DNA of 64,000 bases from Streptomyces sp. TLI_053 (GTDB lineage: Bacteria > Actinomycetota > Actinomycetes > Streptomycetales > Streptomycetaceae): positions 1,302,001 to 1,366,000 of the forward strand of contig NZ_LT629775.1 in the NCBI RefSeq assembly GCF_900105395.1, in the 5' to 3' direction. Position numbers and translations under genes: made by a program. The notes beneath the pieces were generated by a model. That model did not search any database. It was not told the origin of the DNA and was given only the letters and a program-made list of their open reading frames with translations. Below are positions 9,260 through 26,631 of the stretch, in pieces. Positions within the stretch are counted from its first letter, which is position 1. Each line of letters opens with the position of its first letter.

Positions 9260-9309
9260 GCGGAGGGGCGACGGCCCGCACCACGTGGTGCGGGCCGTCG
9301 CCCCTCCGC
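9260..9309. terminator. 50-nt perfect palindrome, probable terminator of the SulP operon
   Basis: Positions 9260-9309 are self-complementary over all 50 bases, centred on CACCAC/GTGGTG. It lies 79 nt beyond the SulP stop and is the only strong structure in the 329-nt gap 9060-9388. Being symmetrical it could stop transcription from both sides. Confidence 0.75.
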
Positions 9310-9388
9310 ACGCCCGCTCCCGGACCGGCGGGCCGGCAGGTCGGAACAGCACCCCGACCCGCCCGCCCCCGGAGCGCGGCAACGGGTT

Positions 9389-10867: not shown

Positions 10868-10974
10868 CGGGTCCTCGGGAGAGTGGCGGTTCGGACGGTG
10901 GTCGGGGGATATCGGGCCGGAGGGCGGCGGGGCGTGCGGCCGCTGGTCGTGCGGCGGCCCGTGCGGCGCGGGGC

Positions 10975-11577: not shown

Positions 11578-11600
11578 GAGGGTGACTGCCTCCTTCGGTG

Positions 11601-11630
11601 ACGTCAGGTGCGCCTCTGGTCACCTGACGT
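11601..11630. promoter_or_regulatory. Inverted repeat upstream of the carbonic anhydrase
   Basis: ACGTCAGGTG and its exact complement CACCTGACGT are separated by ten bases, 24-53 nt upstream of the carbonic anhydrase start. The position between promoter and ribosome site fits an operator or a 5'-UTR hairpin. No regulator is identified. Confidence 0.6.
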
Positions 11631-11639
11631 TGCGTCAAG

Positions 11640-12015
11640 AAGGAGTAAAACATGGGTATGGGGCAAGCAAAAGCGAGTTCTGGGCGCAGAGTGTGCCGAT
11701 CCGGTTAACATCCTGTTGCCTCGAACGAAATGACGCCTTCCACTACGGAAAGCGCAGGTCAAGCGGTACGGCCCGGACCGGCCGGCGATGGGCGCACAAA
11801 ATTTTCCGCGCGCCCCTCCTGCTTCTCTGCGCCGTCTTCACACCTCGCGCACCCCGTCTTCCGCACCCCGCCTTCCGCGCACCGCAGCCCGTGGTCCCGC
11901 AGCCCCGGCTGCGGGTCCGGACGGCCCCCGCGGAACATTCCGGCCGTTCGGCGAATCAGAGTCCGGGAGGCCGACGCGCGGGCGCCGGCGCCGGGGCGAG
12001 GGGAGCCGGGCGGGC
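11640..12015. other. Divergent promoter region before the dynamin/Hsp70 island
   Basis: No gene is supported here. The first 170 bases are strikingly A/T-richer than the surroundings (for example 11640-11680 and GGTTAACATCC near 11703), so promoters for both the carbonic anhydrase operon and the island are probably within. I could not fix a -35/-10 pair with confidence. The remainder is C-rich with CGCACCCCG/CTTCCGCACC words. Confidence 0.5.
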
Positions 12016-14136
12016 ATGACGGGGATCGACACGGGCACGGTCGCGGCCGACACCACGGCCGCCCTGGAACGGCTCGGTGCGGCGGCGCGGGCGCGCGGGC
12101 TGGCCGGGACCGCCGAACGGCTGGACGAGGCGGTGCGGCGGCTCGCGGACGGACGGATCGTGGTCGTGGTCTGCGGCGAGTTCAACCGGGGCAAGTCCAG
12201 CCTGGTCAACGCGCTGGTGCGGCGACCGGGGCTGCTGCCGGTGGACGTGCTCCAGACCACCAGCGTGGTCACCACGCTGGCCTGGGGCACCCGGGACACG
12301 GCGACCGTGCACCTTCGCGAGCAGAACGGCGGCACGCGGCAGCGGGAGGTCCCGTTCACCGAACTGGCCGACTACGTGGCGGAGAGCGCCAACCCCGGCA
12401 ACCGGCTGCGGGCCGAACTGCTCGACCTGCGACTGCCGTCCGAGGCGCTGACGGGGGGCACCGTCCTGGTCGACACCCCGGGCATCGGCGGGGTGTTCCC
12501 CGAGCACACGGCGGTGACCGCCGGCTTCCTCGCCTCCGCCGACGCGGTGGTCTTCGTCGCCGACACGACCTCGCCGCTCTCCGCCGCCGAACTGCGCTTC
12601 CTCCGCCACGCCCTGACCGCCGCGGCCGCCGGCAGCACGGGACCGGACGCACCGGACGCCGACAGCGCGGGGCCGGACCGGCCGGCCGCCGGCAGCACCG
12701 GTCCGGACAAGCCGGCCGCAGATCCGGGCGGCCTGCTGGTCGTCCTCACCCGCGCCGACCAGGCGGACGCCGAGGACCGGCGGGCCATGCTCGACAACAC
12801 CCGCGCCAAGCTCGCCGCACTGACCGGCGACAGGGACGGCGGCCCCGCCGTGCTGGCGGTGTCGACCCGCGCCCGGCTGCGCCACCTGGCCGCCGCCGGG
12901 GCCCGGCCGGACGCGCCCGCCTCCGCGGACGGGGCCGCCGACCCCGACAGCGGCTACCCCGAATTCGAGTCCGCACTCCGGGGCCTGCTGCGCCGCCGCC
13001 GGGCGAGCCTGCTGCTGGCCCGGCCGCTGGCCGAGGCGGACGCCGCCGTCACGGCCCTGCTGCGACCGCTGGAGGCGGAACGGGAGGCACTCGCCCGGGA
13101 GACCGACGAGACGCTGGCCCGGCTGCGGGCCTCGGCCGAGGCCGGGCAGCGCGAGGCCGCCGGAGCCCGCCGGTCCGGCGCCGAGTGGCGCACCGAACTC
13201 CGCGCCGAGCTGCGGAAGCTGCGCAACGCGCTGACCGGCTCCCTGCACGACGACCTGGACGCGGTGTGGGAACGGATCTGCAACGACCTGCTGCACGACG
13301 AGTCCCTCCAGGACGACGCGGACCGGCTGGCCGCCGAGGTGGCCTCCGCCTACGCGGCGGTGGCGGGCGCGACCGCGCACCGGGCCGAGACCGAACTCCG
13401 TGCCGTGGTGGCCGCCTTCGCCCGGCAGCACCGGCTCGGGATCGGGCCGGTCGGGGCGGGACGGATCGCCGCGCCCGGAGCGGTGCGGCTGGACCCGGAC
13501 CTGGGCTCCGGCCGAGCGCCCGGGCCGATGATGCCGGTGAGCCGGGACGGCTCGTTCGGGGCCTCGATGGGCGCCGCCGTCGGCGGGATGCTGTTCGGAC
13601 CGGCGGGCGCTGCCGTCGGCGGCGCGATCGGCCTGGTCGCGGGCCTGCTGCGCGGGCTCGGAGCCGTCCGCGACCAGGAGGTCCAGGCCCGCCGGCGCAA
13701 TCTGCGCGACCAGCTCGCCCTGGTGCGCTCGCGCCAGCAGCGGGTGATCACCGAGGGCCTGCGGAGCCTGCTCGACACCGCGGCGGAGCAGGCCGAGCGG
13801 GAGCTGGACAGTCTGCTGCGCCAGCAGGACGAGAGCGCGCAGGAGACCGTGTCGCGGCTCCGGGCGGCGGCGGAGACCACCCGCGCCGAGGCCGGGGCCC
13901 GGCACAAGGTGCTGACCGAGGAGCACGGCGCACTGATCGCGGCCGGACGCGAGGTGGCCCGGCTGGCGGCCCTGGTCGCGGCGGTCGTCGACGAGCCCCC
14001 GGCCGGGACGGGCCCCGCGGGCGCGCCCCGGTCCGGCCCCGCGGGCGCGCCCGACGAAGGTCCCGGGGCCGCGCCCCGCCCCGCGCCCGAGGACGGTCCC
14101 GGGGCCGCACCCGGCCCCGGGGCGGTGGGGCGGTGA
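12016..14136 (+). CDS. Dynamin-like GTPase A1 (IniA-type), first gene of module 1
   Basis: 706 residues. The G domain has G1 GEFNRGKS (54-61), G2 in LQTTSVVTTL (about 81), G3 DTPG (153-156) and G4 TRAD (245-248, family consensus TKAD). Residues about 203-238 are an Ala/Gly/Pro/Asp insert containing AGSTGPD twice. Long helices follow, then a Gly/Ala-rich hydrophobic stretch near 515-555 (GAAVGGMLFGPAGAAVGGAI), the expected membrane-inserting paddle of a bacterial dynamin. The Pro-rich tail is disordered. Dynamins bind and remodel membranes upon GTP hydrolysis. The stop overlaps the next start by 4 nt (GTGA). The open frame extends upstream to 11788, but conserved-looking sequence begins at ATG 12016. 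Confidence 0.88.
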   Translation: MTGIDTGTVAADTTAALERLGAAARARGLAGTAERLDEAVRRLADGRIVVVVCGEFNRGKSSLVNALVRRPGLLPVDVLQTTSVVTTLAWGTRDTATVHLREQNGGTRQREVPFTELADYVAESANPGNRLRAELLDLRLPSEALTGGTVLVDTPGIGGVFPEHTAVTAGFLASADAVVFVADTTSPLSAAELRFLRHALTAAAAGSTGPDAPDADSAGPDRPAAGSTGPDKPAADPGGLLVVLTRADQADAEDRRAMLDNTRAKLAALTGDRDGGPAVLAVSTRARLRHLAAAGARPDAPASADGAADPDSGYPEFESALRGLLRRRRASLLLARPLAEADAAVTALLRPLEAEREALARETDETLARLRASAEAGQREAAGARRSGAEWRTELRAELRKLRNALTGSLHDDLDAVWERICNDLLHDESLQDDADRLAAEVASAYAAVAGATAHRAETELRAVVAAFARQHRLGIGPVGAGRIAAPGAVRLDPDLGSGRAPGPMMPVSRDGSFGASMGAAVGGMLFGPAGAAVGGAIGLVAGLLRGLGAVRDQEVQARRRNLRDQLALVRSRQQRVITEGLRSLLDTAAEQAERELDSLLRQQDESAQETVSRLRAAAETTRAEAGARHKVLTEEHGALIAAGREVARLAALVAAVVDEPPAGTGPAGAPRSGPAGAPDEGPGAAPRPAPEDGPGAAPGPGAVGR

Positions 14137-15698
14137 CCGCCGCCGACCTCCGGCGGGCCGCGCTGGCCGTCCTCACCGACGCGGCCGGGGCCGAGCACCT
14201 GCCCGGGGAGTTCCGGCGGACGCTGGCCGAGCAGGCCGGACGGCTCGCCGCGCCGTTCGCCGTCGCCCTGGTCGGCCGGGTCAGCAGCGGCAAGTCCACC
14301 CTGGTCAACGCCCTGCTCGGGACCAGGCTCGCCCCGACGGGGGTGACCGAGCTGACCATGACGGTCAACCGGTTCCGCTACGGCGCCCCGGCCGCGCTGG
14401 CGGTGCACTTCGAGGACGGCACCGTGGTCCACCACCCGGACCTGTCCGCCCTGGAGGCCCTCACCGTCCGCACCGCCGACGCCCCCCGGCGGCACGGACC
14501 GCCGCACCGGATCGACCATCTGGAGACCGCCTTCCCGCACCCCGCGCTGGCCGGCACGGAGATCGTCGACACCCCGGGGCTGGACTCCGCCACCGGCCCC
14601 GAGTCGGCCGCCACCCTGCGACTGCTGGGCCGCACCGCGAGCGGCGTCACCGGGTCGACGGTGACCGAGGGCGCGAGGGCCGACGCGCTGGTGCTGACCT
14701 TCACCGCCCGAGGGGTCCACCGGGAGGAACTGCGCCTCACCTCCGACTTCCTGGCCCATGTGCCCGGGCTCGGTCCGCTCAACACCGTCGGCGCGCTGAC
14801 CAAGACCGAACTGTTCTGGGACCCGGTCGACACCCCGGACCCGTTCCTGCCCGCCCGGCGGGTCGCGGACCAACTGCTGCGCGCCGCCGGGGCATCCCGG
14901 CTGCTGTACACGGCGGTGCCGGTGGCGGGCCTGCTCGCCTCGGGCGCAGCCGACCTGGACGCCGCCGACCTCGCCGACCTGACCGCGCTCGCCACCGGTT
15001 GCGAGCCGCACCGGCTGGCCGAACTCGCCGCGGAGGCCGACCGGTTCACCGCGGCGGACGGCGTACTGCCGCTGCCGGCCGCCGCCCGGTCCCGCCTCTA
15101 CCGGCGCTTCGGCGGCTGGGGCGTGGCGACCGCGCAGCGGCTGGTCCGCGACGGCGCCACCGAGGCCGGGCCGCTGCGCGCCGAACTGCTCCGGATCTCC
15201 GGCATCGACACGCTGCGCGCCCTGCTCCGCGACCATTTCGGCGGACGCGCCGACCTCATCAAGGCCGCCCGGGCGTTCCGCACCGTGCCCCGGCTCGCCG
15301 GGCTGACGGCGGCCGGGCTGACCGGCGAGCCGGCCCGCGCCGTGGCCGCCGTGGCCGGCGCGTTCACCGCCGTCGAACTCCGGCACGCCCAGGCGTACGC
15401 CGAACTGCGCTCGCTGCGCGACCACTTCGAGGGCCGGCTCGACCTGCCCGCCGACCAGGTGGCCGAGTTGCTGCGGGTCACCGGTGAGCACGGCAGCACC
15501 GCGGCGGACCGGCTGGGCCTGCCGCCGGGCACGGACCGCGCGGTGCTGCTGGCCGCCGCCCGCGCCCGGCTCGACCACTGGCACCGGCTGCTCGCCGCTC
15601 CCACCGTCGGCGGTCCGGCCCGGCAGGCCCAACTGACCGTCCGGGACGCCTACGAGGCGATCCACCACGACCTCTCGCGATCGGAGCCGTCCAGGTGA
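14133..15698 (+). CDS. Dynamin-like GTPase B1 (IniC-type), module 1
   Basis: 521 residues. G1 GRVSSGKS (48-55), G2 region LTMTVNRFRY, G3 DTPG (146-149) followed by LDSATG, G4 TKTE (223-226) where the Asp of TKxD is Glu. No hydrophobic paddle is present, so it probably works as the partner of the preceding, membrane-binding dynamin, as in bacterial dynamin pairs. It starts with GTG overlapping the previous stop by 4 nt and ends with a 4-nt overlap on the Hsp70 gene, so the three are translationally coupled. Confidence 0.88.
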   Translation: MTAADLRRAALAVLTDAAGAEHLPGEFRRTLAEQAGRLAAPFAVALVGRVSSGKSTLVNALLGTRLAPTGVTELTMTVNRFRYGAPAALAVHFEDGTVVHHPDLSALEALTVRTADAPRRHGPPHRIDHLETAFPHPALAGTEIVDTPGLDSATGPESAATLRLLGRTASGVTGSTVTEGARADALVLTFTARGVHREELRLTSDFLAHVPGLGPLNTVGALTKTELFWDPVDTPDPFLPARRVADQLLRAAGASRLLYTAVPVAGLLASGAADLDAADLADLTALATGCEPHRLAELAAEADRFTAADGVLPLPAAARSRLYRRFGGWGVATAQRLVRDGATEAGPLRAELLRISGIDTLRALLRDHFGGRADLIKAARAFRTVPRLAGLTAAGLTGEPARAVAAVAGAFTAVELRHAQAYAELRSLRDHFEGRLDLPADQVAELLRVTGEHGSTAADRLGLPPGTDRAVLLAAARARLDHWHRLLAAPTVGGPARQAQLTVRDAYEAIHHDLSRSEPSR

Positions 15699-18091
15699 GC
15701 AAGAAGTCCAAGCGGACCGCGGCGGTGGAACCGGCAGCACCCGCAGAACCGGCAGCACCCGCAGAACCGGCGGCAACGGCGGCAACGGCGGAACCGGCGG
15801 AGGAGCCCGCACCGGTCGGGCCGGTACTGGTCGTCGACTTCGGCACGAGCACCACCCAGGCCGCCGTCGTCGAGGGCGGCACCGTCCGGATGCTGCACGA
15901 GCCGGCCACCGGCGCCGCGTCCTGGCCCTCGGCCGTGCTCGCCGACGGCTCCGGCGGCGTCCTCGTCGGCGCCCCGGCCGAGCGCGGCAAGCGGCTCCAC
16001 CCGCTGCGCTACCGGGCGGAGATCAAGCGCGACCTGGGCAGCCGGGTGCCGCTGCTGCTCGACGGCGCGAGCCACTCCGCGACCGAGCTGGTGGCGGCCG
16101 TGCTGCGCGCCGTCGCCGCCGAGGCGCACCGGGTGCTGGGCCGCGCCCCCGAACGGACCGTGCTCACCGTCCCGGCCGGGGCCGGGACGCACGACGCCCG
16201 GCGGCAGGCGATGCTGGCGGCCGCCGAGGCGGCCGGGCTGAGCCGGGTCGGCCTGCTCGCCGAACCACTGGCGGCGGCCTGGGCGCCACCGGTCGGCGCG
16301 CCCTTCCCCGTGGGCTCGACCGTGCTGGTGCACGACCTGGGCGGCGGCACCTTCGACGCGGCCCTGGTGCGGATCGGCGACGCCGGACCGGAGTTGCTCG
16401 GGCACGGCTCCCTCGACGACTGCGGCGGGCGGGATCTCGACGTCGCGCTGCTGGCCCACCTGAGAGGGAGCGGCCCCGAGCTGCGTGCGGCTCCGCCGGA
16501 CACCGACGAGGCCGCCGCCCGGCGGGCGGCGCTCGACCTGGACACCTTCGTGCGCGAGCTGAAGCACGGGCTGGCGATGGCCGAGCGGGTCGAGGACCTC
16601 GCTCCCGACGGCACCGTCGTCGCCCTCGACCGGGACACCCTGCGCGCCGTGGCGGCGGAGCTACTGGAACCCACTGTCGAGAGCTGCCGCGCCCTGCTGC
16701 GCGTCGCGGCCGCCTCCGAGAACACCGACCCGGGTGGGGGTACCGCACGGGTGGACGCCGTCCTGGTGACCGGCGGGACCAGTCGCAGCCCCGTGGTCCG
16801 CGAGCTGATCGGGGAGGCGTTCGGAGCCCCGGTCCGCCAGCCCGAGGACCCGCAACTGGCCGTGGTGCGCGGCGCCGCCGCCTGGGCCGCGCTCACCGCC
16901 GCCCGCGACCTGCGCCCGGTGGTCCGCGAGCCGGGCACCGAACCGCTGGCCTGGGACGTGCCGGGCGGCTCGGCCGTCTTCCTCGGACCGCACGTCGCCG
17001 AGGGCACCCGGTACTCGGCGGGCGCGGTGCTGGCCGACGTGCGGTCGTCGACGGGCACCGTGCACCGGCTACGGGCCCGGTACCCCGGCGAACTGGTGCG
17101 CTGGCACACCGATCCGGGCGGACGGTTCCGCTCGGGCGACTGGCTGGCCACCACCGTCGGGGCCGGACCGGACGCCTTCCTCCCCGTGTGGCGGCACCCG
17201 TTCGCCGACCTCAGAACCATCGGGTGGACACCCAAGGGAGCGCTGCGGATCGCCACCGCGACGTCCGCCCACGAGTGGACCGGCGGCACCGAGGTCCGCC
17301 GGCTCGCCACGTTCCCGCCCTCCCAGGCGGAGCTGTACTTCTCTCCCCGTGCCGAGACGCTGTTCCAGCTCCAGGACGACCGGAGGACCGCCGCACTGCA
17401 CCCCTTGGACGGCGACGGGCCGGTCGACGGGAACCCCGCTGTGGTCCAACTCCTGCCGGGCAATCCCGCTCGGACCGACAGCCTGTGGCGCGCGCTCCCG
17501 GTCGGGCCGGACCGCCTGCTGGTGGCCGTCGCCAGGAGCTCGGGGAGGTATTCGTCGTACGAGATCTGGAGCGTCGGCGACGGCCTCACCCCGCAGCTCC
17601 TCACCGACCAGGGTATCCAGCCGACCGGGCCCGACCTCGGCCTCTGCACGGGATCCGACTCGCTGGCATGGAGCGTCGACCGGACGAACACCCGGATATT
17701 CCCCTGGCAGGGCAACAAGCCTCCCGTCCGGTCCGTCGCCTGGTCCACGTCAAAGCGGCCGCAGCGGAACGCCATGCACACCGGGCACCCTCCGGCGGAG
17801 GTGTCCGCCGATCTCTGCACGGTGCGGCTGGGCGACAGGACACTCGGAACGAAACCCGTGAGCGTCCTGGAGTTCGCCCCCGACGGCAAGCACCTGGCGC
17901 TCGGCCTCGACAGCGGCTGGGTGCTCGTGGCGGACAGCGAAAGCCTCACCGTCATCGCCGAACTCCCGCACTCCAGCGGTGGTTTGCATACCCTGGCCTG
18001 GTCCCCCGACAGCTCCGCACTGGCACTCGCGGGTGACGGAAAAGTCACGGTGTGGCGGCGGGAACTTTCCGCTCCGCACCGGGGTCTATGA
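15695..18091 (+). CDS. Hsp70-like ATPase 1 with lipoyl-like segment and beta-propeller tail
   Basis: 798 residues. Residues 12-40 are an Ala/Pro/Glu repeat. The Hsp70-type nucleotide-binding domain runs from about 45 to 410: phosphate-1 VVDFGTSTTQAAV, phosphate-2 VHDLGGGTFDAAL (near 212), adenosine motif VTGGTSRSPVVREL (near 357). The DnaK substrate-binding domain is missing. In its place comes a short all-beta segment with the Gly pattern of lipoyl/biotinyl barrels (LRARYPGELVRWHTDPGG, then SGDWLAT) but no modifiable lysine motif, then about 300 residues of propeller-like blades (LEFAPDGKHLALGLDSG; TLAWSPDSSALALAGDG). A peptide-folding role is therefore unlikely; an ATP-dependent sensor or scaffold for the dynamins is my inference. 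Coupled to dynamin B1 by a GTGA overlap. Confidence 0.85.
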   Translation: MSKKSKRTAAVEPAAPAEPAAPAEPAATAATAEPAEEPAPVGPVLVVDFGTSTTQAAVVEGGTVRMLHEPATGAASWPSAVLADGSGGVLVGAPAERGKRLHPLRYRAEIKRDLGSRVPLLLDGASHSATELVAAVLRAVAAEAHRVLGRAPERTVLTVPAGAGTHDARRQAMLAAAEAAGLSRVGLLAEPLAAAWAPPVGAPFPVGSTVLVHDLGGGTFDAALVRIGDAGPELLGHGSLDDCGGRDLDVALLAHLRGSGPELRAAPPDTDEAAARRAALDLDTFVRELKHGLAMAERVEDLAPDGTVVALDRDTLRAVAAELLEPTVESCRALLRVAAASENTDPGGGTARVDAVLVTGGTSRSPVVRELIGEAFGAPVRQPEDPQLAVVRGAAAWAALTAARDLRPVVREPGTEPLAWDVPGGSAVFLGPHVAEGTRYSAGAVLADVRSSTGTVHRLRARYPGELVRWHTDPGGRFRSGDWLATTVGAGPDAFLPVWRHPFADLRTIGWTPKGALRIATATSAHEWTGGTEVRRLATFPPSQAELYFSPRAETLFQLQDDRRTAALHPLDGDGPVDGNPAVVQLLPGNPARTDSLWRALPVGPDRLLVAVARSSGRYSSYEIWSVGDGLTPQLLTDQGIQPTGPDLGLCTGSDSLAWSVDRTNTRIFPWQGNKPPVRSVAWSTSKRPQRNAMHTGHPPAEVSADLCTVRLGDRTLGTKPVSVLEFAPDGKHLALGLDSGWVLVADSESLTVIAELPHSSGGLHTLAWSPDSSALALAGDGKVTVWRRELSAPHRGL

Positions 18092-18151
18092 ACCGTCAGG
18101 CGCCCGCCACCCGTCGCACCCGGCCGTCGGGGGCGCGCCTGTGGGGGGTCG

Positions 18152-18709
18152 GTGTTGCGGTACACGAGGTCGCCGGACCTGACGGGTCTGGGCGACGAGG
18201 AACTCGTCCCGCGCGCGGTCGCCGGCGACCGGTGCGCACTCGAAGAACTCCTGCGCCGGCACCGGACCACGGTGCTGACCGTCTGCGCGGGCATCACCGG
18301 CAACCGCGAGGACGCGCTGGACGCCTGCCAGAACGCGCTGATCCGGGTGGCCGGCGCGATCGGCTCGTTCCGGGCCGAGGCCCGGTTCACCACCTGGCTG
18401 CGGACGATCGCGGTCAACGCCGCCAGGGCCGAACTGGCCCAGCGCAAGCGACGGCCGTACCCGGTGCTGGACGAGGCGCTGCCGGTCGAGGCGGTACGGC
18501 CGGTGGACGGCAGTGTCACCGACGTGGTGCGGGTCCAACAGGCCCTGGCCGCACTGGAGGTGGACTTCCGGGCGGTGGTGGTGCTGCGGCACCTGTGCGG
18601 GTGCAGCTACGAGGAGATGGCGGAGGTGCTGGCGATCCCCGTCGGCACCGTCAAGAGCCGTCTGGCGCGGGCCCGTCAGGAGCTGGTGCGCGTGCTCGGA
18701 CCGGACTGA
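18152..18709 (+). CDS. ECF sigma factor, centre of the dynamin/Hsp70 island
   Basis: 185 residues. Region 2 covers DRCALEELLRRHRTTVLTVC through RFTTWLRTIAVNAARAE; region 4 covers VQQALAALEVDFRAVVVLRH and YEEMAEVLAIPVGTVKSRLA. It should direct RNA polymerase to a small stress regulon. GTG 18152 has a GGGGGG ribosome site. It starts 60 nt after Hsp70-1 and precedes the small repeat protein by 40 nt, in one co-directional run. No zinc-finger anti-sigma factor is next to it, so its control is unknown. It may transcribe the island itself. Confidence 0.92.
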   Translation: MLRYTRSPDLTGLGDEELVPRAVAGDRCALEELLRRHRTTVLTVCAGITGNREDALDACQNALIRVAGAIGSFRAEARFTTWLRTIAVNAARAELAQRKRRPYPVLDEALPVEAVRPVDGSVTDVVRVQQALAALEVDFRAVVVLRHLCGCSYEEMAEVLAIPVGTVKSRLARARQELVRVLGPD

Positions 18710-18749
18710 GGGGGACCCGGACAACAGGCCCCAGTGGGAGGAGTCCCCG

Positions 18750-19106
18750 GTGGAGGCGTCCCCGTTCAGCCAGGAGGGCCCGTTGAACCACGAGCACCCC
18801 CGCCACGAGCACCCCCGCCACGAGCACCCGCGCCGGGAGCTCCCCGGCAGGGAACGGTCGGCGCCGGACCCGGTGCTCGCGCCCGGGACAGTGGCCCGAC
18901 TGCATGCCCTGCTCACCGCCGTACCGCTGCCGGAGGTCGACGACGGGACGTGGCGACGGCTGGTCGCCACCGCCCTCGGCCGGCTCGGCACCGACAGCCG
19001 GACCGAGCCGCCCGACCGGACCGGCCCGCCCGGCCCGCCCGACCCGCCCGACCCGCCCGACCCGCGCGACCCGCCCCGCCGTCCCGAACCGAAGGACCAC
19101 CGGTGA
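18750..19106 (+). CDS. Small protein with HEHPR repeats and Pro-rich tail, unknown function
   Basis: 118 residues from GTG 18750 (GGGAGGAG upstream); an in-frame TTG at 18783 also has a strong AGGAGG site. Near the N-terminus HEHPR occurs three times in tandem, encoded by a 15-nt DNA repeat at 18789-18833. The middle (PGTVARLHALLTAVPLPEVD and DDGTWRRLVATAL) looks helical and folded. The tail is Pro/Asp-rich from short DNA repeats. It lies between the ECF sigma factor and Hsp70-2 and overlaps the latter's start by 4 nt, so it belongs to the operon. The position is where an anti-sigma factor would sit, but no ZAS motif or membrane helix is visible. I do not recognise the family. Confidence 0.7.
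   Translation: MEASPFSQEGPLNHEHPRHEHPRHEHPRRELPGRERSAPDPVLAPGTVARLHALLTAVPLPEVDDGTWRRLVATALGRLGTDSRTEPPDRTGPPGPPDPPDPPDPRDPPRRPEPKDHR
18789..18833 (+). repeat. 15-nt tandem repeat, three copies, inside the small-protein gene
   Basis: The unit CACGAGCACCCCCGC is repeated three times in frame; the third copy has one substitution. It encodes His-Glu-His-Pro-Arg, so the copy number may vary between strains without shifting the frame. Confidence 0.85.
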
Positions 19107-21472
19107 CCCGTGAACCCGTCCTCGCCGTCGACTTCGGCACCTCCACCTCCGCCGCCGCACTGGTCGCCGACGGCCGGGTGCGCCTGATCAAGGAACCGTC
19201 CGGCGACTCCTGGGCCTGGCCCTCCACCGTCTCCTGGGACGGCGCCCGGCTGCTCGTCGGCACCCCCGCCGAGCACCGCCGGGCCGTCCACCCCGCCTCC
19301 TTCCGCGGCGAGTTCAAACGCGACCTCGGCGAGCGCGCCCCGCTGCTGCTCGGCGACGCCTCCTACCGGGCCGAGGAGCTGGTGGCCGCACTGCTGGCGG
19401 CCGTGCGCGGCGAGGCAGAACGGCTGCACGGCCAGGCCGTCACCCGGGCCGTGCTGACCTACCCCGCCTCCTACGGGCCCGGCGACCCGCGCCGGCGGCT
19501 GCTGGTCGGGGCGGGCGAGGCGGCCGGTCTCACCGTCGTCGACCTGCTCGCCGAACCGGTGGCCGCCGCGCTCGCCCCGATCGCCGGGCCCGCCCTGCAA
19601 CCCGGCGACCTGGTCCTGGTCCACGACTTCGGCGGCGGCACCTTCGACGCCGCACTGGTCCGGATGCCGCCGCCGGACGCCTCGGCCGAGGCGGTGGAGG
19701 TCCTGGGACACACGGCGCTGGACGACTGCGGCGGCCACGACATCGACGTGCTGGTCGCCGAGGAACTGGTCCGGCTCGGCGGCGACCGGCTCACGGCGTG
19801 GCTGCGCCCGGGCGGCGCGCCGAAGGAGTCCGACGGCGCCACCGACCGGCTCCGCCGCGAGGTCGAACTCGCCGACCTCGCCCACCGGTTCAAGCACCGG
19901 CTGAGCGTCGAGGCCGAGGTCGACGACTACCTGCGCTCCGCCGGGCTGCCCACCGCCCTCGGCCGGGACCGGCTGGCCGAACTCGCCGCGCCGCTGGTCG
20001 CCCGGACCGTCACCCGCTGCCGGGAACTGCTCGAACGCTGCGGCCAGGCCCCGGACCGGCTCGCGGCCGTGCTGCTGGTCGGCGGCAGCACCCGGATGCC
20101 CGCCGTCCGCGACGCGCTGGCCGAGGCGTTCCCCGGACTGCTGCGCCACGTCGAGGACCCGGAACTGGCCGTCGCCCAGGGCGCGGCCGCCTGGGCCGGG
20201 CTCGCCACCCGGCGCTACTCGGCCGCCGAGCGGCCCACCTCCTCCGGCGTCCCGCTCGGCTGGCAGCTGCCCGGCGACTCCGGCCGACTGCTGCGCTGGT
20301 ACGTGACGCCGAGCGAGGAGTTCGCCGCGGACGCCGTGCTCGCGCTGGTCCGGCTGGCCGACGGCGGCCTGTGGGAGCTGCGCGCCGACGGGCGCCCCGG
20401 GACCGTCGCCCGGCTGCACGTCGCGGAGGGCGCGGCGGTGTCGTCCGGGGACTGGCTGCTGACCACCGGGCGGGCGGGCGGGCGCCGGACCGCCCGCTCG
20501 GGGAAGTACGGCGGCGCGAACGTCCGGCCGCGGTGGGCGGAGGCCGCACCGCTCCGGGCCCGGGTACGGGCGCTGCCCGAGCCGCGGCCGGTCGGCCCGG
20601 TACTGCCGGTCCCGGGCGACGTGCCACGGCTGCTCACCGTGCACGGCGAGCAACTGGTCTGTTCCGAACTGCTGCCGGCCGAGACGGTCCGGCAGTGGGA
20701 ACGTCCGGGGATCGGCTGGGCGACGGCGACCGCGCCCGGTGCCGGGGCGCCGCTGGCGGCCGCCATCCACAAGTCCGGCCGCCAGGTCGACGTCCTCGAC
20801 CTGACCACCGGAGCGCTCGAGTGCTCCGTCCCGCTCCCCACCAACGCTGCCGCGGTGGCCTTCTCCGCCGACGGGGCCCTGCTCGCGGTCACGGACATCC
20901 AGCGCCGCTTGCGCCTGGTCCGGACCGTCGACGGTGAGGTGACCGCCGAGATCGACCTGTCACGCTTCAGCCCGACCGGCGGGCAGGCGTTCTCCCCCGA
21001 TCTGGAGTTCACCGCGGTCCCGGTCGGCCAGACCGTGGTCCTCTGCCACACCTCGGGACGCCGCGCCGAGAGCGTGCCCCAGCTCACCCTGTCCGATCTC
21101 CGTCTGGTGCGCCCGCTGCCGGTGTCGGCCGGGTTCGCCAGTGGTGCCTCCGACCTGACCGCGGTGGACGTCTGGAGCCTCGGCGGCTACACCGCCCGGC
21201 TGCGGGACCCGGCGCTGGCCAAGGCCTTCGTGCTGGCGGTCGGCCCCGACGAACGGCTGCTCGCCGCCGCCGACCAGGCCGGCTGCGTCTCGGTCTGGGA
21301 ACTGCCGCAGCCCGACCCGGAGCAGCCGCACCGGCTGCTGGAGGTGTCCGGCCCGCTGCACCGGATGACGCTGCCCACCCCGCCACGGAACCTGGTGTTC
21401 GGCACCGACTCCAGCACCCTGTTCGCCGCCACCGACCGTGAACTCCACAGCTGGGACCTGGAGAAGGAGTGA
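19103..21472 (+). CDS. Hsp70-like ATPase 2 with lipoyl-like segment and beta-propeller tail, module 2
   Basis: 789 residues from GTG 19103, overlapping the previous stop by 4 nt. The nucleotide-binding domain has LAVDFGTSTSAAAL at the N-terminus, VHDFGGGTFDAALV (near 175) and VLLVGGSTRMPAVRDAL (near 325). After it comes ELRADGRPGTVARLHVAEG with SSGDWLLTT, the same lipoyl-like segment as in Hsp70-1, again without a lysine motif. The rest has propeller-like repeats (VAFSADGALLAVTD; LAVGPDERLLAAADQAG; VSVWELPQPD). It lacks the N-terminal Ala/Pro extension of Hsp70-1. No substrate-binding domain is recognisable. It precedes the dynamin pair here, whereas Hsp70-1 follows its pair. Confidence 0.85.
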   Translation: MTREPVLAVDFGTSTSAAALVADGRVRLIKEPSGDSWAWPSTVSWDGARLLVGTPAEHRRAVHPASFRGEFKRDLGERAPLLLGDASYRAEELVAALLAAVRGEAERLHGQAVTRAVLTYPASYGPGDPRRRLLVGAGEAAGLTVVDLLAEPVAAALAPIAGPALQPGDLVLVHDFGGGTFDAALVRMPPPDASAEAVEVLGHTALDDCGGHDIDVLVAEELVRLGGDRLTAWLRPGGAPKESDGATDRLRREVELADLAHRFKHRLSVEAEVDDYLRSAGLPTALGRDRLAELAAPLVARTVTRCRELLERCGQAPDRLAAVLLVGGSTRMPAVRDALAEAFPGLLRHVEDPELAVAQGAAAWAGLATRRYSAAERPTSSGVPLGWQLPGDSGRLLRWYVTPSEEFAADAVLALVRLADGGLWELRADGRPGTVARLHVAEGAAVSSGDWLLTTGRAGGRRTARSGKYGGANVRPRWAEAAPLRARVRALPEPRPVGPVLPVPGDVPRLLTVHGEQLVCSELLPAETVRQWERPGIGWATATAPGAGAPLAAAIHKSGRQVDVLDLTTGALECSVPLPTNAAAVAFSADGALLAVTDIQRRLRLVRTVDGEVTAEIDLSRFSPTGGQAFSPDLEFTAVPVGQTVVLCHTSGRRAESVPQLTLSDLRLVRPLPVSAGFASGASDLTAVDVWSLGGYTARLRDPALAKAFVLAVGPDERLLAAADQAGCVSVWELPQPDPEQPHRLLEVSGPLHRMTLPTPPRNLVFGTDSSTLFAATDRELHSWDLEKE

Positions 21473-21477
21473 GACCC

Positions 21478-23466
21478 GTGCCCGACTACGCGTCCCTGCG
21501 CGACGAGATCCTCGACCTGCTGGAGCCGCTCACCGCGACCGCCCGCACCCGCCGGGCCGAGCAGACCGCCGACCGGCTCTGCGGCGCCCACGAACGCCTG
21601 CTGTCAGGCGAGTTGACGGTGGTGGTGTGCGGGGAGTTCAACCGCGGCAAGTCCAGCCTGCTGAACGCGCTGCTGGAGCGCCCGAACATCCTCCCCGTGG
21701 ACCCGTACTTCGCCACCAGCGTCGCCGCCGTGATCCGCCACGGTGCCCCGGAACGCGCCGAGGTCACCCTCCGCCTCCCGGACGGCAGGCTGGAAGCGCG
21801 GCGGATCCCGCTCGACCGGATCGGCGACTACGCCGCCGAGGGCGGCGAGCACAGCGGCGAGGCCGTGCTGCTCGACCTGCGGCTCGACGTGCCGCGCCTC
21901 GAATCGGGGCTGGTCCTCGTGGACACACCGGGCGTGGGCGGCGTCTACCACCAGCACACGGCCGTGACCATGGGCCAGCTCCCCAACGCCGACGCGGTCG
22001 TGTTCGTGCTCTCCGCCGAGGAGCCGCTGACCGACAGCGAGACGGCCTTCCTCCGCGAGGCCGCGCACGCCGTCAGGGCCGCCGACCACCCGGACGCCCT
22101 GTTCTACGTGCTCACCAAGGCGGACCTGCCCGAGGACATCGGGGCCGACCTCGCCGCCGGGCGGCGCAAGATCGCCGCCGTGACCGGGCGCGAGCCGGAG
22201 GACGTGCTGATCGTCCCGGTGTCGAGCCGGCTCAAGCAGCGCCACCTGGCCGGGGTCGCCGACGACGATCCCGAGCGGCGGGCCAGACTGCTGGCCGCCT
22301 CGGGCTTCCCCCGGCTGGAGGAGGCCCTCTGGTCCCGGCTCGCCGCCCACCGCGCGCGGGTGCTGCTCGGCGGCGCCCTGGTCGAGGCGCAGGCCGCCGT
22401 GCGCACCCTGCTGGAGCCGCTGCTGACCGAGGAGAGCGCGCTCCGCGACGGCAGCCGGACCCGGCTGGCGGAACTGCGCGCCGAGACCGAGCGGGAGTCG
22501 GAGCGGCTGGCCGAGCTGTCCTCGGGCGCGGCGCCGTGGCGGGCTCGGCTGGAGCGCGAACTCGACAGCCTGCGGGCCGGGACGGCCGAACGCACCCGGG
22601 AGGAGTTCGAACGGGTGTGGCGGCGCGCGGAGACCGAGCACCTGGAGGTGCGGGCGCACCTCACCAAGCCCGACCGGCTGGCCGACCGGATCAACGCGGA
22701 CCTGACGCTGGCCCGGTCGACGGTCGGCGAGTGGGCCGCCCGGCGCGCCGCCGCGCTGCAGAGCGGGCTGGCCCGGGAGCTCGGCGTCGAGCTGGCGGGC
22801 GGCACGCTCGGGGAGCTGCCGCCCGCACCGGTGCTGGACCTCGGCGGTTTCGGCCGCCTGCACCGGCCGACCAAGGAGGTGCGCGAGGTCGAACCGGCGA
22901 CCTACCGCACCGTGACCAAGCAGCGGCAGGCGAAGCGGGCGGCCGGTCCGACGCCGTCGGGGTTCGGCAACCGGGTCAGGCATCTGTACCGGCAGGCCCA
23001 GGACTTCTTCGCCCCCCGCTACGAGTCCTACCAGGAGCGGGTGCTCGACCGGCCGGAGCGGGTCCGGTACCGGACCGTGGAGCAGGAGATCCCCGAGCGC
23101 GTCCTCAAGGAGCGCCGCCGGGAGCTCGCCGAGGCCGTCGGCCGGGCCCGGCGGGACCAGGAGCCGATGGTGGCACGGGCCGTGGAGGAGGCGGTCGCCG
23201 CCTTCGCCCGGGACATCGCGGCCGAGCTGGACAGCCGGATCGAGCGGGAGAAGGAGCGGACCGCGGACACCCTGGAGCGGCTGCGGCGCAGCGCCGAGCG
23301 CACGGCGGCGGAGGCGGCCCGGCGGCTCGGCGAACTGGCTCGGGAGCAGGGGCCGTTGCGGGAACTCGGGGAGCGGGTCGAGGTGCTGGCCGGCGCCGTG
23401 CAGGGGCTCGCCGGCCCCGAGGCTGCCGCTCCCGCCCCGCCCGACGCGGCCGGCGGTCGGGCATGA
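21478..23466 (+). CDS. Dynamin-like GTPase A2 (IniA-type), module 2
   Basis: 662 residues from GTG 21478, eight bases after AAGGAG; a GTG at 21469 overlapping the Hsp70 stop is the alternative. G1 GEFNRGKS (52-59), FATSVAAVIRHG as switch region, G3 VDTPGVGGVYHQHTAV and G4 TKAD. It is clearly the counterpart of dynamin A1 (same GEFNRGKSSL and HTAVT segments). It lacks the Gly-rich hydrophobic stretch; the same place holds a basic, aromatic segment (GNRVRHLYRQAQDFFAPRYE) between long coiled-coil helices. Peripheral rather than inserted membrane contact is my inference. Confidence 0.87.
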   Translation: MPDYASLRDEILDLLEPLTATARTRRAEQTADRLCGAHERLLSGELTVVVCGEFNRGKSSLLNALLERPNILPVDPYFATSVAAVIRHGAPERAEVTLRLPDGRLEARRIPLDRIGDYAAEGGEHSGEAVLLDLRLDVPRLESGLVLVDTPGVGGVYHQHTAVTMGQLPNADAVVFVLSAEEPLTDSETAFLREAAHAVRAADHPDALFYVLTKADLPEDIGADLAAGRRKIAAVTGREPEDVLIVPVSSRLKQRHLAGVADDDPERRARLLAASGFPRLEEALWSRLAAHRARVLLGGALVEAQAAVRTLLEPLLTEESALRDGSRTRLAELRAETERESERLAELSSGAAPWRARLERELDSLRAGTAERTREEFERVWRRAETEHLEVRAHLTKPDRLADRINADLTLARSTVGEWAARRAAALQSGLARELGVELAGGTLGELPPAPVLDLGGFGRLHRPTKEVREVEPATYRTVTKQRQAKRAAGPTPSGFGNRVRHLYRQAQDFFAPRYESYQERVLDRPERVRYRTVEQEIPERVLKERRRELAEAVGRARRDQEPMVARAVEEAVAAFARDIAAELDSRIEREKERTADTLERLRRSAERTAAEAARRLGELAREQGPLRELGERVEVLAGAVQGLAGPEAAAPAPPDAAGGRA

Positions 23467-25043
23467 CGAGCGCCCCCGGGGATCTCGGCGACCTCGGCGA
23501 CCTCGGGGCCCGGGCCGACGCCGCCCTCGCCGGGGCGCAGCGGCTGCTGTCCCGCGGCGGCGGCTCGGCCGAGGTCCTGCGCGCCGCCTTCGAGGCCGAA
23601 CAGCATCGGCTGCGGCGACAGATGAGCGTGGTCGTGGTGGGCCGGATCTCGGCCGGCAAGTCCACCCTGGTCAATGCGCTGATCGGCGAGGAGCGGGTGG
23701 CCACCGGCTCGCAGGAACTGACCTTCAACGTCAACCGGCTGCGGTACGCCGACACCCCGCGGCTGCTGGTCCGCTATCGGGAGGAGGGCCGTCCGTCCGT
23801 GGAGTACTCCCCGGACCGGCTGGCCGAGCTGACCGCGCGCCGCGAGGATCACCTGGAGCAACTGCGCGGCATCCGGGAGGTGCTGGTCGAGTTCCCCGCC
23901 CCCTATCTGCGGCTGTTCGAGCTGATCGACACCCCCGGGCTGGACTCGGTGTACGGCGAGGACTCGCTCAACACCCTGGCCTTCCTGCGGCTGCGGCCGG
24001 AGGAGGTGGCGAGCACCAGCCGCCGGCACGCCACCGCCGCCGACGCCCTGCTGCTGGTCCTGCCGGTCCGCGGGCCGTCGACCACGGACGCCGAGGTGGT
24101 GGCCCACTTCCTCGGCCGGGACTTCGAGAACTCCACCCCGCTCACCACCCTGGGTGCCCTCACCAAGTGCGAGGAGCTGTGGGAACCGGACGGACCGCAC
24201 CCGCTGGTGCTCGGCCGCCGGCTCGCCGACCGGATCCTCCAGGACGCCCCCGGCATGCGCCGACGCCTGTTCGACCTCACTCCGGTGTGCGGGCTGCTCG
24301 GCCAGGCCGCCGCCACCCTGGACGAGTCCGATGTCGCCGCCCTGGAGGAACTCGCCTCCCTCCGGCCGGACTTCCTCTCCTACCTGCTGGGAGCGGCCGC
24401 CTTCTTCCTCGGCGAGGACGAGGGCGCACCGCTGGACGGTGCCCGCCGCCGCGCCCTGTGGCGCCGCTTCGGGCCGTACGGCCTGCACACCCTCTGCGGG
24501 CTGGTCCGCGACGGCGAGCGGCGGGTCCCCGAACTGCGCGCCTTCCTGGCTGCGGACAGCGGGCTGGACGGGCTGCGCACCCAACTCGCCGACCACTTCG
24601 GCCACCGGTCCGCGCTGCTGAAGCTGCACACGGCGCTGGAGCGGATCCGGCGGATGCCCCTGGACCTCGCGGCCGGGGTCGGCCCGCGCGAACGGGCCCT
24701 GCTGGAGGAGGCGATCGGCCTGGTCGAGGCGCTGGTCCTGGACGAACCCGGCTTCGCCGAACTGCGCACGCTGCGCGAGCTGTACGGCGGGCGGCTCCGG
24801 CTGGACGCCGGGGCCACCGAGGAACTGCGGCGACTGCTGGGCGAGTTCGGGCGCGGCCCGGCCGACCGGCTGGGGCTGCCCGCGGACAGCGGCGCGGACG
24901 AGCTGCGGGCGGAGGCCCGGCGACGGCACGGGGTGTGGCTGAACCGCTGGCAGTCCGGCGGCCTGTCCGGCCCGACCCGGGCGGCGGCCCGCGCCGCCGT
25001 CCGGGCGTACGAGCACCTGCTGTACGGGCTGGACGGCGGCTGA
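23463..25043 (+). CDS. Dynamin-like GTPase B2 (IniC-type), module 2
   Basis: 526 residues, coupled to dynamin A2 by an ATGA overlap. G1 GRISAGKS (60-67), LTFNVNRLRY as switch region, G3 DTPGLDSVYG and G4 TKCE, matching the TKxE of dynamin B1. The C-terminal half (LADHFGHRSALLKLHTALER; GRGPADRLGLPADS) parallels B1 (LLRDHFGGRADLIKAARAF; DRLGLPPGTD), so the two B proteins are paralogues. GDLGDLGDLG near the N-terminus comes from a 9-nt DNA repeat. The stop lies 13 nt from that of the convergent Hsp70-3. Confidence 0.88.
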   Translation: MTSAPGDLGDLGDLGARADAALAGAQRLLSRGGGSAEVLRAAFEAEQHRLRRQMSVVVVGRISAGKSTLVNALIGEERVATGSQELTFNVNRLRYADTPRLLVRYREEGRPSVEYSPDRLAELTARREDHLEQLRGIREVLVEFPAPYLRLFELIDTPGLDSVYGEDSLNTLAFLRLRPEEVASTSRRHATAADALLLVLPVRGPSTTDAEVVAHFLGRDFENSTPLTTLGALTKCEELWEPDGPHPLVLGRRLADRILQDAPGMRRRLFDLTPVCGLLGQAAATLDESDVAALEELASLRPDFLSYLLGAAAFFLGEDEGAPLDGARRRALWRRFGPYGLHTLCGLVRDGERRVPELRAFLAADSGLDGLRTQLADHFGHRSALLKLHTALERIRRMPLDLAAGVGPRERALLEEAIGLVEALVLDEPGFAELRTLRELYGGRLRLDAGATEELRRLLGEFGRGPADRLGLPADSGADELRAEARRRHGVWLNRWQSGGLSGPTRAAARAAVRAYEHLLYGLDGG

Positions 25044-25056
25044 GAACGCGACCCGG

Positions 25057-26463
25057 TCAGTCCTCGTGATGCTGTTCGACCGTCACCAGCCAGTCGCCGT
25101 CCCGCACCTGCTCCCCCGGGCGGGCGTGCTGGGCCCGTACCCGGCCCGGCGCGGACGCCGAGAGGTGCAGCAGCGAGCCGTCGGCGGCCCGGGCCCGGCC
25201 CAGCACCGCCCCGGCCGGGTAGCGGCGACCGGGGCCGACCGACCACTCGAGCAGGACCGCGCCGCCGGGCGGCAGCGGCCAGCGCAGCGGCGTCCGCTCA
25301 GGGACCGGGCCGGACGCCTCGACGGTGCGCACCACCCGGGCCGCGGCCCAGGCCGCCGCGCCCTCGGCGACGGCGGTGCGCGGGTCCTCGGCCAGGACCA
25401 CCGGCAGCCCCAGCGTCTGCGCGACGTGCTCCACCAGGCCGGGCAGCCGGCTGGAGCCGCCGATCACCACCACCGCGTCGGGCCTCGGCGGGCGGCCGGT
25501 GGTGTCGAGCAGCGCGGTCTCGGCGAGCAGCCGTGCGCAGCAGGCGGTGGTGCGCGCGTACAGCGGCTCGGCCTGCCGCAGGAACCGGTCCCGGTGCAGA
25601 CCCAGCACCCGCCCGGCCGGGGCGAACACCTCGGCGGGGGCGCTCTCGTAGGCGAGCCGGTGCTTGAGCCGCCGGGCGAGGTCGAGCAGCTGGATCCGGT
25701 GACGCAGCGCGGTGTCGTCCCGCGCCGCGTCCCTGTTCTCCTCCCCGTGCTCCGACGGGAGCAGGGCCGCCAGCTCCGGGCCGCCCCGGTCGAGGAGTTC
25801 GGCGTACACCAGGGCGTCGAAGTCCCGGCCGCCGTACTCCTCGCCGTCGTGGGCGAGCACGGCGGGGCCGGGGCGGCCGTCCTCTCCCGGCAGCCGGACC
25901 AGGGCGGTGTCGAAGGTGCCGCCGCCGAGGTCGTGCACCAGGACGGTGCTGCCCGGCGGCAGCGGTCCGCCGGCGAGCGGGGCGAGCGCCCCGGCGACGG
26001 GTTCCGGGCAGAGTTCGGGCCCGGGCAGCCCGGCCCGCCGGGCCGCGTCCAGCAGTTCCTCCCCGCGCGGGTCGGCCGGCCCGTAGGCGGCGGGGACGGT
26101 GAGCACGCTCCGGTCGACCGGTCCGCCGTTGGCCCGCTCGGCCTCCGCCCGCACGGCCTGGAGCAGCAGCGACACCAGCAGCCCGGCCGGATGCCCGCGC
26201 CCGCCGAGGTCGACCGGCACGCCCCGGCCGAGGGTCCGCTTGAGTTCGTCCCGGTACGCGGCGGGGTCGAGCAGCCGCCGCTGCTCGGCCGCCGACCCGA
26301 CGTACGGCCGGTTCCCGGCCAGCAGCACCGCCGACGGCCAGGCCCAACCGTCCCCGACCGGCTCCCGCAGCCGCCGCACCGACCCGCCCCGCGCCAGCGC
26401 GGCACAGGTGGTGGTGGTCCCGAAGTCGACGGCCAGCACGGACTCGACGGCACTCGCACCCAC
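25057..26463 (-). CDS. Hsp70-like ATPase 3, short form without propeller
   Basis: 468 residues from GTG 26463 (GAGGAGGGA upstream). The nucleotide-binding domain has VLAVDFGTTTTCAALA, VHDLGGGTFDTALVRL and VVVIGGSSRLPGLVEHV. It ends just after the lipoyl-like segment (LSASAPGRVRAQHARPGEQV, then DGDWLVTVEQ), with neither a DnaK substrate-binding domain nor the propeller of the other two. It is transcribed towards the island and probably has its own promoter. The shared architecture suggests it works with the same dynamins or is a relic of a third module. Confidence 0.85.
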   Translation of the reverse strand: MGASAVESVLAVDFGTTTTCAALARGGSVRRLREPVGDGWAWPSAVLLAGNRPYVGSAAEQRRLLDPAAYRDELKRTLGRGVPVDLGGRGHPAGLLVSLLLQAVRAEAERANGGPVDRSVLTVPAAYGPADPRGEELLDAARRAGLPGPELCPEPVAGALAPLAGGPLPPGSTVLVHDLGGGTFDTALVRLPGEDGRPGPAVLAHDGEEYGGRDFDALVYAELLDRGGPELAALLPSEHGEENRDAARDDTALRHRIQLLDLARRLKHRLAYESAPAEVFAPAGRVLGLHRDRFLRQAEPLYARTTACCARLLAETALLDTTGRPPRPDAVVVIGGSSRLPGLVEHVAQTLGLPVVLAEDPRTAVAEGAAAWAAARVVRTVEASGPVPERTPLRWPLPPGGAVLLEWSVGPGRRYPAGAVLGRARAADGSLLHLSASAPGRVRAQHARPGEQVRDGDWLVTVEQHHED

Positions 26464-26631
26464 GGGGGTCCCTCCTCGCTCCGGGTCTCCCTCTCGGATC
26501 CGCCCGACGGTACTTTTGTTCCGCCCGGACCGCCGCCGGTGGCGTCATTCGCCCCGGCTCGGCTCCGCCCGGAGCGCGCCGACGAACCCAGCAGGGGTTT
26601 CACCGGCCCCTGAACCCGCTGGGGCGCCGGG

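What the first reader, a model, noticed from the sequence alone, without database searches (positions are those of the whole stretch)
12016..26463. Doubled dynamin/dynamin/Hsp70 island around an ECF sigma factor
Seen: two co-directional three-gene modules (dynamin A1, B1, Hsp70-1; then Hsp70-2, dynamin A2, B2) flank an ECF sigma factor and a small repeat protein, with 4-nt overlaps at five junctions and a convergent third Hsp70-like gene. Known: paired dynamins occur in bacteria, for example IniA/IniC of the isoniazid-inducible mycobacterial operon, and mycobacterial and other actinobacterial loci place Hsp70-like genes next to them. Inferred: an envelope-stress or membrane-repair (possibly anti-phage) machine in which two dynamin heterodimers are switched by dedicated ATPase/propeller sensors and transcribed by their own sigma factor. 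The doubled layout around an ECF gene is one I do not know.
Basis: partly seen in the sequence, partly recalled or inferred. Interest (0 to 1): 0.85.

Follow-up and report, generated by a model that had tools for sequence, protein, structure and literature searches.

The report
Sigma-wired dynamin–Hsp70 membrane alarm island
A bacterium that is likely a Kitasatospora carries a compact gene island with two pairs of dynamin-family proteins, three Hsp70-like proteins and a sigma factor, which likely works as a self-amplifying alarm that would remodel the cell membrane under attack, possibly by phage.

Summary
Nine genes at 12016-26463 form A1-B1-Hsp70(1)-ECF sigma-small protein-Hsp70(2)-A2-B2, converging on Hsp70(3), with five 4-nt overlaps. 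The layout is not a one-off: a second genome, inferred to be Streptomyces, has all nine genes in the same order, and DNA similarity stops at the island edges. The sigma looks dedicated: at E<=1e-33 it occurs in 2 of 391 order genomes, the two in which I found the island. A bipartite ECF-type box, GGAACA-N14-CGRATC, sits before both converging units in both genomes. The small protein's conserved core (not its repeats) also occurs as an N-terminal tail of a dynamin directly behind a related sigma gene in S. lushanensis. The Hsp70s keep the ATPase domain but have a lipoyl-like barrel in place of the substrate-binding domain; two add a propeller, and propellers in this family diverge fast. Dynamin A is IniA-like. 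A1 and A2 are separate lineages, not a recent duplication. I propose an accessory, immune-type membrane alarm: propeller-Hsp70s sense, dynamins act, the sigma gives positive feedback. Gene grouping, sigma dedication and domain replacement are well supported; sensing, sigma release and phage defence are inferred. No listed paper described it.

The parts
11932..11957 (+). ECF-type promoter-like box GGAACA-N14-CGAATC, 58 nt before A1
   Evidence: exact site; the only CGAATC version in the 9.9 Mb own genome; same box 57 nt before A1 in G170
12016..14136 (+). dynamin A1 (706 aa), IniA-like, with a glycine-zipper segment at residues 531-547
   Evidence: Dynamin_N 2.5e-20; zipper; AF2 model pLDDT 82.5, zipper region unresolved; Foldseek best match IniA, TM-score only 0.37-0.47
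14133..15698 (+). dynamin B1 (521 aa)
   Evidence: Dynamin_N 1.6e-12; 67% to B1 of G170; P-loop and DTPG present, TKTE where A2 has TKAD
15695..18091 (+). H1: Hsp70 ATPase domain + lipoyl-like barrel + WD-type propeller (798 aa)
   Evidence: HSP70 2.9e-31, propeller profiles below their cut-offs; barrel profile
18152..18709 (+). ECF sigma factor (185 aa)
   Evidence: Sigma70_r2 and r4_2 above cut-off; close relatives found only with dynamin A or the island
18750..19106 (+). small sigma-adjacent protein (118 aa) with a conserved core of about 40 residues, related to an N-terminal tail of a dynamin in S. lushanensis-type loci
19103..21472 (+). H2: Hsp70 ATPase domain (1-370) + lipoyl-like barrel (383-456) + disordered linker (460-482) + propeller (487-785)
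   Evidence: HSP70 4.4e-40; AF2 pLDDT 90.4, pTM 0.63; structure matches of the ATPase domain
21469..23466 (+). dynamin A2 (665 aa), IniA-like, no glycine zipper
   Evidence: Dynamin_N 3.3e-21; profile of the A family matches IniA over its length, 7.7e-74; zipper absent
23463..25043 (+). dynamin B2 (526 aa)
   Evidence: Dynamin_N 1.3e-16; 75% to B2 of G170; P-loop and DTPG present, TKCE where A2 has TKAD
25057..26463 (-). H3: Hsp70 ATPase domain + lipoyl-like barrel only (468 aa), convergent
   Evidence: HSP70 3.2e-27; barrel; 70% to H3 of G170
26497..26522 (-). second promoter-like box GGAACA-N14-CGGATC, 33 nt before H3
   Evidence: counterpart before the H4-H3 unit of G170

Best explanation
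The island looks like a self-contained, accessory system in which propeller-bearing Hsp70-type proteins likely act as sensors, two dynamin pairs would act on the cell membrane, and an ECF sigma factor, whose close relatives I found only in such loci, is predicted to switch on both of the island's converging transcription units, its own included. Shown: gene content and order, conservation as a block in a second genome, restriction of the sigma to the island-bearing genomes searched, one shared ECF-type box before both units in both genomes, conserved ATPase-domain residues and GTPase motifs, a lipoyl-like barrel in place of the Hsp70 substrate-binding domain, and propellers that diverge much faster than the ATPase domain. 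Inferred: (1) a ligand, perhaps a phage product or a lipid or wall fragment, binds the propeller and sets the Hsp70 nucleotide state; (2) this gates assembly of the A/B dynamins at the membrane, supported by a natural Hsp70-dynamin A fusion; (3) the small protein holds the sigma, in some species as a tail of dynamin A, so activation frees it; (4) the sigma then transcribes the whole island, a positive-feedback alarm; (5) the output is membrane guarding in an immune-type role, because the system is sporadic and its sensors change fast.
For: Synteny in G170: sigma 78%, B2 75, H3 70, A2 68, B1 67, A1 61, H2 59, H1 50; small protein present between sigma and H2; DNA similarity stops at the island edges. 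Sigma: 2 of 391 order genomes at E<=1e-33, own included; 1 of 70 same-genus genomes at 1e-50, the own one; among the 7997 candidates scored in the protein search three clusters reach 76% or more, then a drop to 50%, and all three share a contig length with a dynamin A. Promoter box: 4 of 4 unit heads in two genomes; within one mismatch the window has 2 sites, both at heads, against 0.08 expected. Co-occurrence: 12 of 12 genomes with a dynamin A hit have an Hsp70-like gene nearby. Fusions: Hsp70 with dynamin A, P0144; small-protein core with dynamin A, S. lushanensis locus and four protein clusters, profile match E 4.7e-7 to the G170 protein and 0.0085 to the window protein. Propellers: H2 against K. 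purpeofusca 96% in the ATPase domain, 60% in the propeller; 68 protein pairs, median drop 34 points, against 10.6 for 160 dynamin A pairs. Literature: B. subtilis DynA delays phage lysis (PMC8844932, abstract).
Against: No expression data. No direct evidence for phage defence; the flanking genes with a family hit are ordinary metabolic, transport or regulatory genes. The window's small protein matches the dynamin-tail profile only weakly (0.0085), and that it binds the sigma is a guess. Seven single-module loci show no sigma match in the stretch fetched. Within two mismatches the promoter box is no commoner in the window than chance, 2 against 1.96; with CGRATC each of the two genomes has two further matches off the island, and a check whether these lie in coding frames does not separate them cleanly from the island sites. 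Faster change of a propeller than of an enzyme domain is partly expected anyway.
Confidence: 0.55

Rival explanations
1. Envelope-stress system of the iniBAC kind: cell-wall or membrane damage, not phage, is the cue, and the dynamins repair or reseal membrane; the propellers bind wall or lipid fragments.
For: The A profile matches IniA over its length and IniA is the best Foldseek match of A1; ECF factors often serve envelope stress (general knowledge); iniBAC is induced by drugs that block the cell wall (PMC6715688, passages).
Against: Sporadic: 9 of 391 order genomes carry a close A; a general repair system would be expected to be wider. No gene that I would call IniB among the nine. Propellers diverge much faster than the dynamins.
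Confidence: 0.25
2. Two unrelated dynamin/Hsp70 modules that happen to sit on either side of a sigma gene serving another regulon.
For: A1 and A2 belong to separate clades, single modules without sigma are common, and four off-island box matches exist in the two genomes.
Against: Same nine-gene order in two genera; sigma only where the island is; same box at both unit heads in both genomes.
Confidence: 0.08
3. A developmental or division system like Streptomyces DynA/DynB, stabilising septa in hyphae.
For: Streptomyces DynA/DynB stabilise Z-rings during sporulation (PMC8748795, passages); the organisms are filamentous (general knowledge).
Against: Accessory distribution; none of the nine genes is a recognised division gene by domain; Hsp70 proteins with fast-changing propellers are not expected of a division machine.
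Confidence: 0.07

Closest known systems
iniBAC operon (IniA/IniC dynamins of mycobacteria)
   Same: Paired dynamin-like genes; A matches IniA over its length.
   Different: No IniB-like gene recognised; adds Hsp70-lipoyl-propeller proteins, an ECF sigma with a small partner, and a second dynamin pair.
GTPase-centric conflict systems with DO-GTPase, GAP1 and HSP70 (Kaur et al. 2020, PMC7159879; section 29 and passages read)
   Same: GTPases, often as a pair, with Hsp70 proteins, some reported without the peptide-binding domain; described for multicellular actinobacteria.
   Different: Dynamins where those have DO-GTPases; no DO-GTPase or GAP1 family hit in the island. A sister locus in the same genome (L011) joins an Hsp70, DO-GTPase2-like proteins and a dynamin pair.
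Bacterial dynamin pairs (C. jejuni DLP1/2; LeoABC)
   Same: Different dynamins encoded together; fold matches of A1 to 5owv/5oxf and 4aur; LeoA profile 1-2e-26 for A1 and A2.
   Different: I saw only search listings of those papers and did not check their gene neighbours; that they lack Hsp70 and sigma partners is recalled.
B. subtilis DynA, delays lysis by phage (PMC8844932, abstract)
   Same: Bacterial dynamin acting at the membrane during phage infection.
   Different: No Hsp70 or sigma partner is mentioned in the abstract; its gene neighbourhood was not checked.

Membership tests
Bacterial dynamin-like protein (IniA type) | Dynamin GTPase domain with intact motifs | tested here: met
   Dynamin_N above cut-off in all four; P-loop and DTPG in all four, last motif TRAD in A1, TKAD in A2, but TKTE/TKCE in B1/B2; P-loop and DTPG residues invariant in 55 A sequences
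Bacterial dynamin-like protein (IniA type) | Similarity to IniA over its length | tested here: met
   profile of the A family to 6j72, E 7.7e-74, positions 11-638 of 651; not run for B
Bacterial dynamin-like protein (IniA type) | Membrane remodelling activity | not testable with these tools
   needs biochemistry
iniBAC operon | iniB gene next to the dynamin pair | tested here: inconclusive
   eight of nine island genes have another family, the small protein has none; no IniB sequence was compared
Hsp70/DnaK chaperone | Hsp70 ATPase domain with conserved active-site residues | tested here: met
Hsp70/DnaK chaperone | Peptide-binding domain with helical lid | tested here: not met
   the Pfam HSP70 match of H2 ends at profile position 374 of 599; the next 80 residues match lipoyl/biotinyl domains (best single-domain hits 6.8e-5, 1.4e-4); no helical lid in the H2 model
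ECF sigma factor | sigma2 and sigma4 domains without the further domains of larger sigma factors | tested here: met
   Sigma70_r2 1.5e-13, r4_2 9.5e-16 in 185 aa
DO-GTPase/GAP1 conflict system | DO-GTPase and GAP1 genes | tested here: not met
   no DO-GTPase or GAP1 family among the Pfam hits of the nine island proteins
LeoABC | LeoA, LeoB and LeoC side by side | tested here: inconclusive
   all four dynamins match LeoA best, B1 and B2 less strongly; no trio
Streptomyces sporulation DynA/DynB | orthology to DynA/DynB | not tested
   no DynA/DynB sequence was compared

The most novel reading that the evidence does not exclude
The dynamin is itself the sigma factor's keeper: the small protein, free in this island and fused to the dynamin's N-terminus in S. 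lushanensis relatives, is a sigma-holding tag, so assembly of a dynamin on a damaged membrane releases a sigma factor and rewires transcription. This would be a direct membrane-to-promoter relay through a dynamin, gated by Hsp70-type ATPases that have a lipoyl-like barrel and a variable propeller instead of a peptide-binding domain.
Probability: 0.3. Interest if true: 0.9.

Novelty: new variant of a known kind. Interest (0 to 1): 0.74.

Why it matters
To my knowledge most bacterial dynamins have no known trigger. Here likely trigger proteins, a regulator and a candidate physical link between them are encoded side by side with a predicted two-promoter regulon, so sensing, switching and output become testable in a tractable soil bacterium. 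If the small protein ties a sigma factor to a dynamin, it would be a new way for a membrane event to reach transcription. The Hsp70-lipoyl-propeller proteins would be an Hsp70 re-used as a sensor switch, not a chaperone.

Tried and rejected
Recent tandem duplication: rejected. A1 and A2 form separate clades with starred support (the tool warned of some long branches elsewhere in that tree). B1, B2, H1, H2 and H3 each pair with their G170 counterpart; the deeper order of the B and H trees is unresolved.

Plasmid carriage: tblastn of A2 against 72,556 plasmid records gave 13 records, none covering 80%; H3 gave none at 1e-40.

Known defence label: PADLOC gave LeoA/LeoB/LeoBC-type matches and one weak mad8 match, for the dynamins alone.

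Sporulation dynamins: two weak Dynamin_N places in the own genome were looked at; one is a HflX-type GTPase beside a RelA-type gene; the other is a 315-aa frame that I take for Era, not searched further. The sporulation pair was not identified.

Promoter by alignment: blastn of the two A1 upstream regions found no convincing homologous stretch; the box was seen by eye in those sequences and then tested, so the A1 pair is where it was found and the H3/H4 pair is the test. S. lushanensis has no site within one mismatch, so its sigma, 47% identical, may use another box. Coding-frame check of the off-island boxes: two lie about 440 and 1120 nt inside long high-GC3 frames and one is antisense to such a frame, one is unclear; but the frames of the island genes, read stop to stop, also cover the four island sites because they run upstream of the start codons, so this check is weak.

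Paper searches listed no report of a dynamin/Hsp70/ECF island; searches had more papers than were listed, and only open-licence PMC text is held. VIA-align rows spanned mainly residues 3-421, so they say nothing about the propeller.

Not obtained: a class-wide survey, so distribution beyond the order rests on protein names and contig lengths.
Full report
WHAT IS THERE. The region 12016-26463 holds nine genes, confirmed by frame, codon-position GC and domain searches: dynamin A1, dynamin B1, Hsp70-like H1, an ECF sigma, a small protein, H2, A2, B2 on the + strand, and H3 on the - strand meeting B2 tail to tail 13 nt apart. Five junctions overlap by 4 nt. The window lies at 1.302-1.366 Mb of a single-contig 9.9 Mb genome. 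Its closest named relatives are K. purpeofusca proteins, 91% for A2 and 95% for the sigma, so I take it to be Kitasatospora. Of 12 flanking genes scanned, ten have an ordinary family: SulP transporter, BadF-type ATPase, methyltransferases, MFS exporter, ArsR-type regulator, secreted-type hydrolase, MMPL protein, aminotransferase, short-chain dehydrogenase; two have none.

CONSERVED AS A UNIT. Of 200 genomes of the family, 7 have a dynamin A match at E<=1e-20; of 391 of the order, 9 at E<=1e-40; the own genome is in both counts. Nucleotide similarity, about 70-76% over the main blocks, ends at the island edges. The other inspected genomes carry single modules in shuffled order: A-B-H (G408, G207), H-A-B (G030), B-A-H (G142, G324, G435), A-H at a contig end (G261), or the DO-GTPase type (G043, G118, G179, and a second locus in the own genome). 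In all 12 genomes an Hsp70-like gene lies within about 6 kb of a dynamin A; B is present in 11, and in G261 the contig ends.

NOT A RECENT DOUBLING. In a tree of 52 A proteins, A1-type and A2-type proteins form two well-supported, separate clades, each with G170 and K. purpeofusca members (long branches elsewhere in the tree were flagged). B1, B2, H1, H2 and H3 each pair with their G170 counterpart. A1 has the glycine-zipper pattern seen in 45 of 55 A proteins, although one of the 45 (P0127) has it only in its tail; A2 and its near relatives lack it. The two dynamin pairs probably do different things at the membrane (inference). Both B proteins have TKxE where A2 has TKAD, so their nucleotide choice is open.

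THE SIGMA GOES WITH THE ISLAND. It is found in 1 of 70 same-genus genomes at E<=1e-50, the own one, and in 2 of 391 order genomes at E<=1e-33, the own genome and G170. Among the 7997 candidates that the protein search scored, three clusters reach 76-95% identity and the next is 50%. Comparing the A1 upstream regions of the two genomes by eye (sequences) gave GGAACA-N14-CGAATC. It occurs once in the own 9.9 Mb genome, 58 nt before A1. With one mismatch the window has just one further site, 33 nt before H3 (0.08 expected in all, 1 of 100 shuffles reached two), and G170 has the same variant before H4-H3. With two mismatches allowed the window count equals chance (2 against 1.96). With CGRATC the own genome and G170 each have four matches, two of them at the island; ten other genomes have 0-7. 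Whether the off-island matches are in coding sequence could not be settled by open frames alone. No site within two mismatches lies directly before the sigma, so it would be made from the A1 promoter: a positive loop (inference).

THE SMALL PROTEIN. In G170 it has 65 residues and neither the HEHPR-type repeats nor the proline-rich tail of the window protein; the core RLHALLTxxPLPExDDxxWxxLVAxAL is shared. In S. lushanensis (L010) a sigma 47% identical to the window's is followed directly by a dynamin A whose N-terminus carries a related core, and four further dynamin clusters have the same tail. A profile of those five tails ranks the G170 protein first (4.7e-7) and the window protein next (0.0085), duplicates of the same two proteins aside, among 3253 targets. 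So the sigma's neighbour and a dynamin's tail look like the same element. I propose that it holds the sigma. It could instead dock the dynamin to the Hsp70, or do both.

LINK BETWEEN HSP70 AND DYNAMIN. One metagenomic protein (P0144, 1022 aa) is an Hsp70 ATPase domain fused directly to a dynamin A without the zipper pattern. With the 4-nt overlaps this favours a physical complex (inference).

WHAT IT WORKS LIKE. My order of likelihood: an immune-type membrane alarm with sigma feedback; an iniBAC-like envelope stress system; coincidence; a developmental system. The immune reading rests on sporadic distribution, fast-changing propellers, and likeness to DO-GTPase/HSP70 conflict systems (PMC7159879; passages and section 29 read), underlined by a locus about 180 kb away in the same genome that combines an Hsp70, DO-GTPase-like proteins and a dynamin pair. 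B. subtilis DynA shows that a bacterial dynamin can delay phage lysis (PMC8844932, abstract only). None of this proves defence.

NOVELTY. Ten full-text searches listed no description of a dynamin/Hsp70 system of this kind or of a sigma tied to a dynamin; three of them had more papers than were listed, and subscription papers and preprints are not held. I call it a new variant of a known kind (dynamin operons and NTP-switched conflict systems).

Noticed in passing
L011 (own genome C1:1119000-1138500), about 7831-17500 on -: A second dynamin/Hsp70 locus about 180 kb away: Hsp70, two DO-GTPase-like proteins, dynamin A, a third DO-GTPase-like protein, dynamin B. Two of the three exceed Pfam's DO-GTPase2 cut-off. 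Similar sets in G043, G118, G179.
   Followed up: partly
L030 4801-8616 and L032 3572-8338: In G043 and G118 an ECF sigma (39% and 35% to the window's, which any ECF might reach) lies upstream of another dynamin A-like gene next to the DO-GTPase type locus; the sigma-dynamin link may be wider.
   Followed up: no
L026 6184-8427: G170 has an extra propeller-bearing Hsp70 (H4) ahead of H3 whose phosphate motif is altered (DLGGST instead of DLGGGT), perhaps an inactive partner.
   Followed up: partly
window B1 (14133-15698) and B2 (23463-25043): Both B dynamins have TKxE in place of the TKxD guanine-binding motif (the motif's role is recalled).
   Followed up: no
P0144 (metagenome protein): Natural fusion of an Hsp70 ATPase domain to a dynamin A, seemingly without the barrel domain.
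   Followed up: partly
P0031, P0033, P0036 (Dactylosporangium): Relatives of the Hsp70s are listed with PF02861, which I recall as the Clp N-terminal repeat domain, and without a propeller family, suggesting exchangeable sensor parts.
   Followed up: no
window 18138-18157 and L026 about 16800-16830 on -: Twenty nt spanning the sigma start (CCTGTGGGGGGTCGGTGTTG) are identical in the two genomes, more than a ribosome-binding site needs.
   Followed up: no
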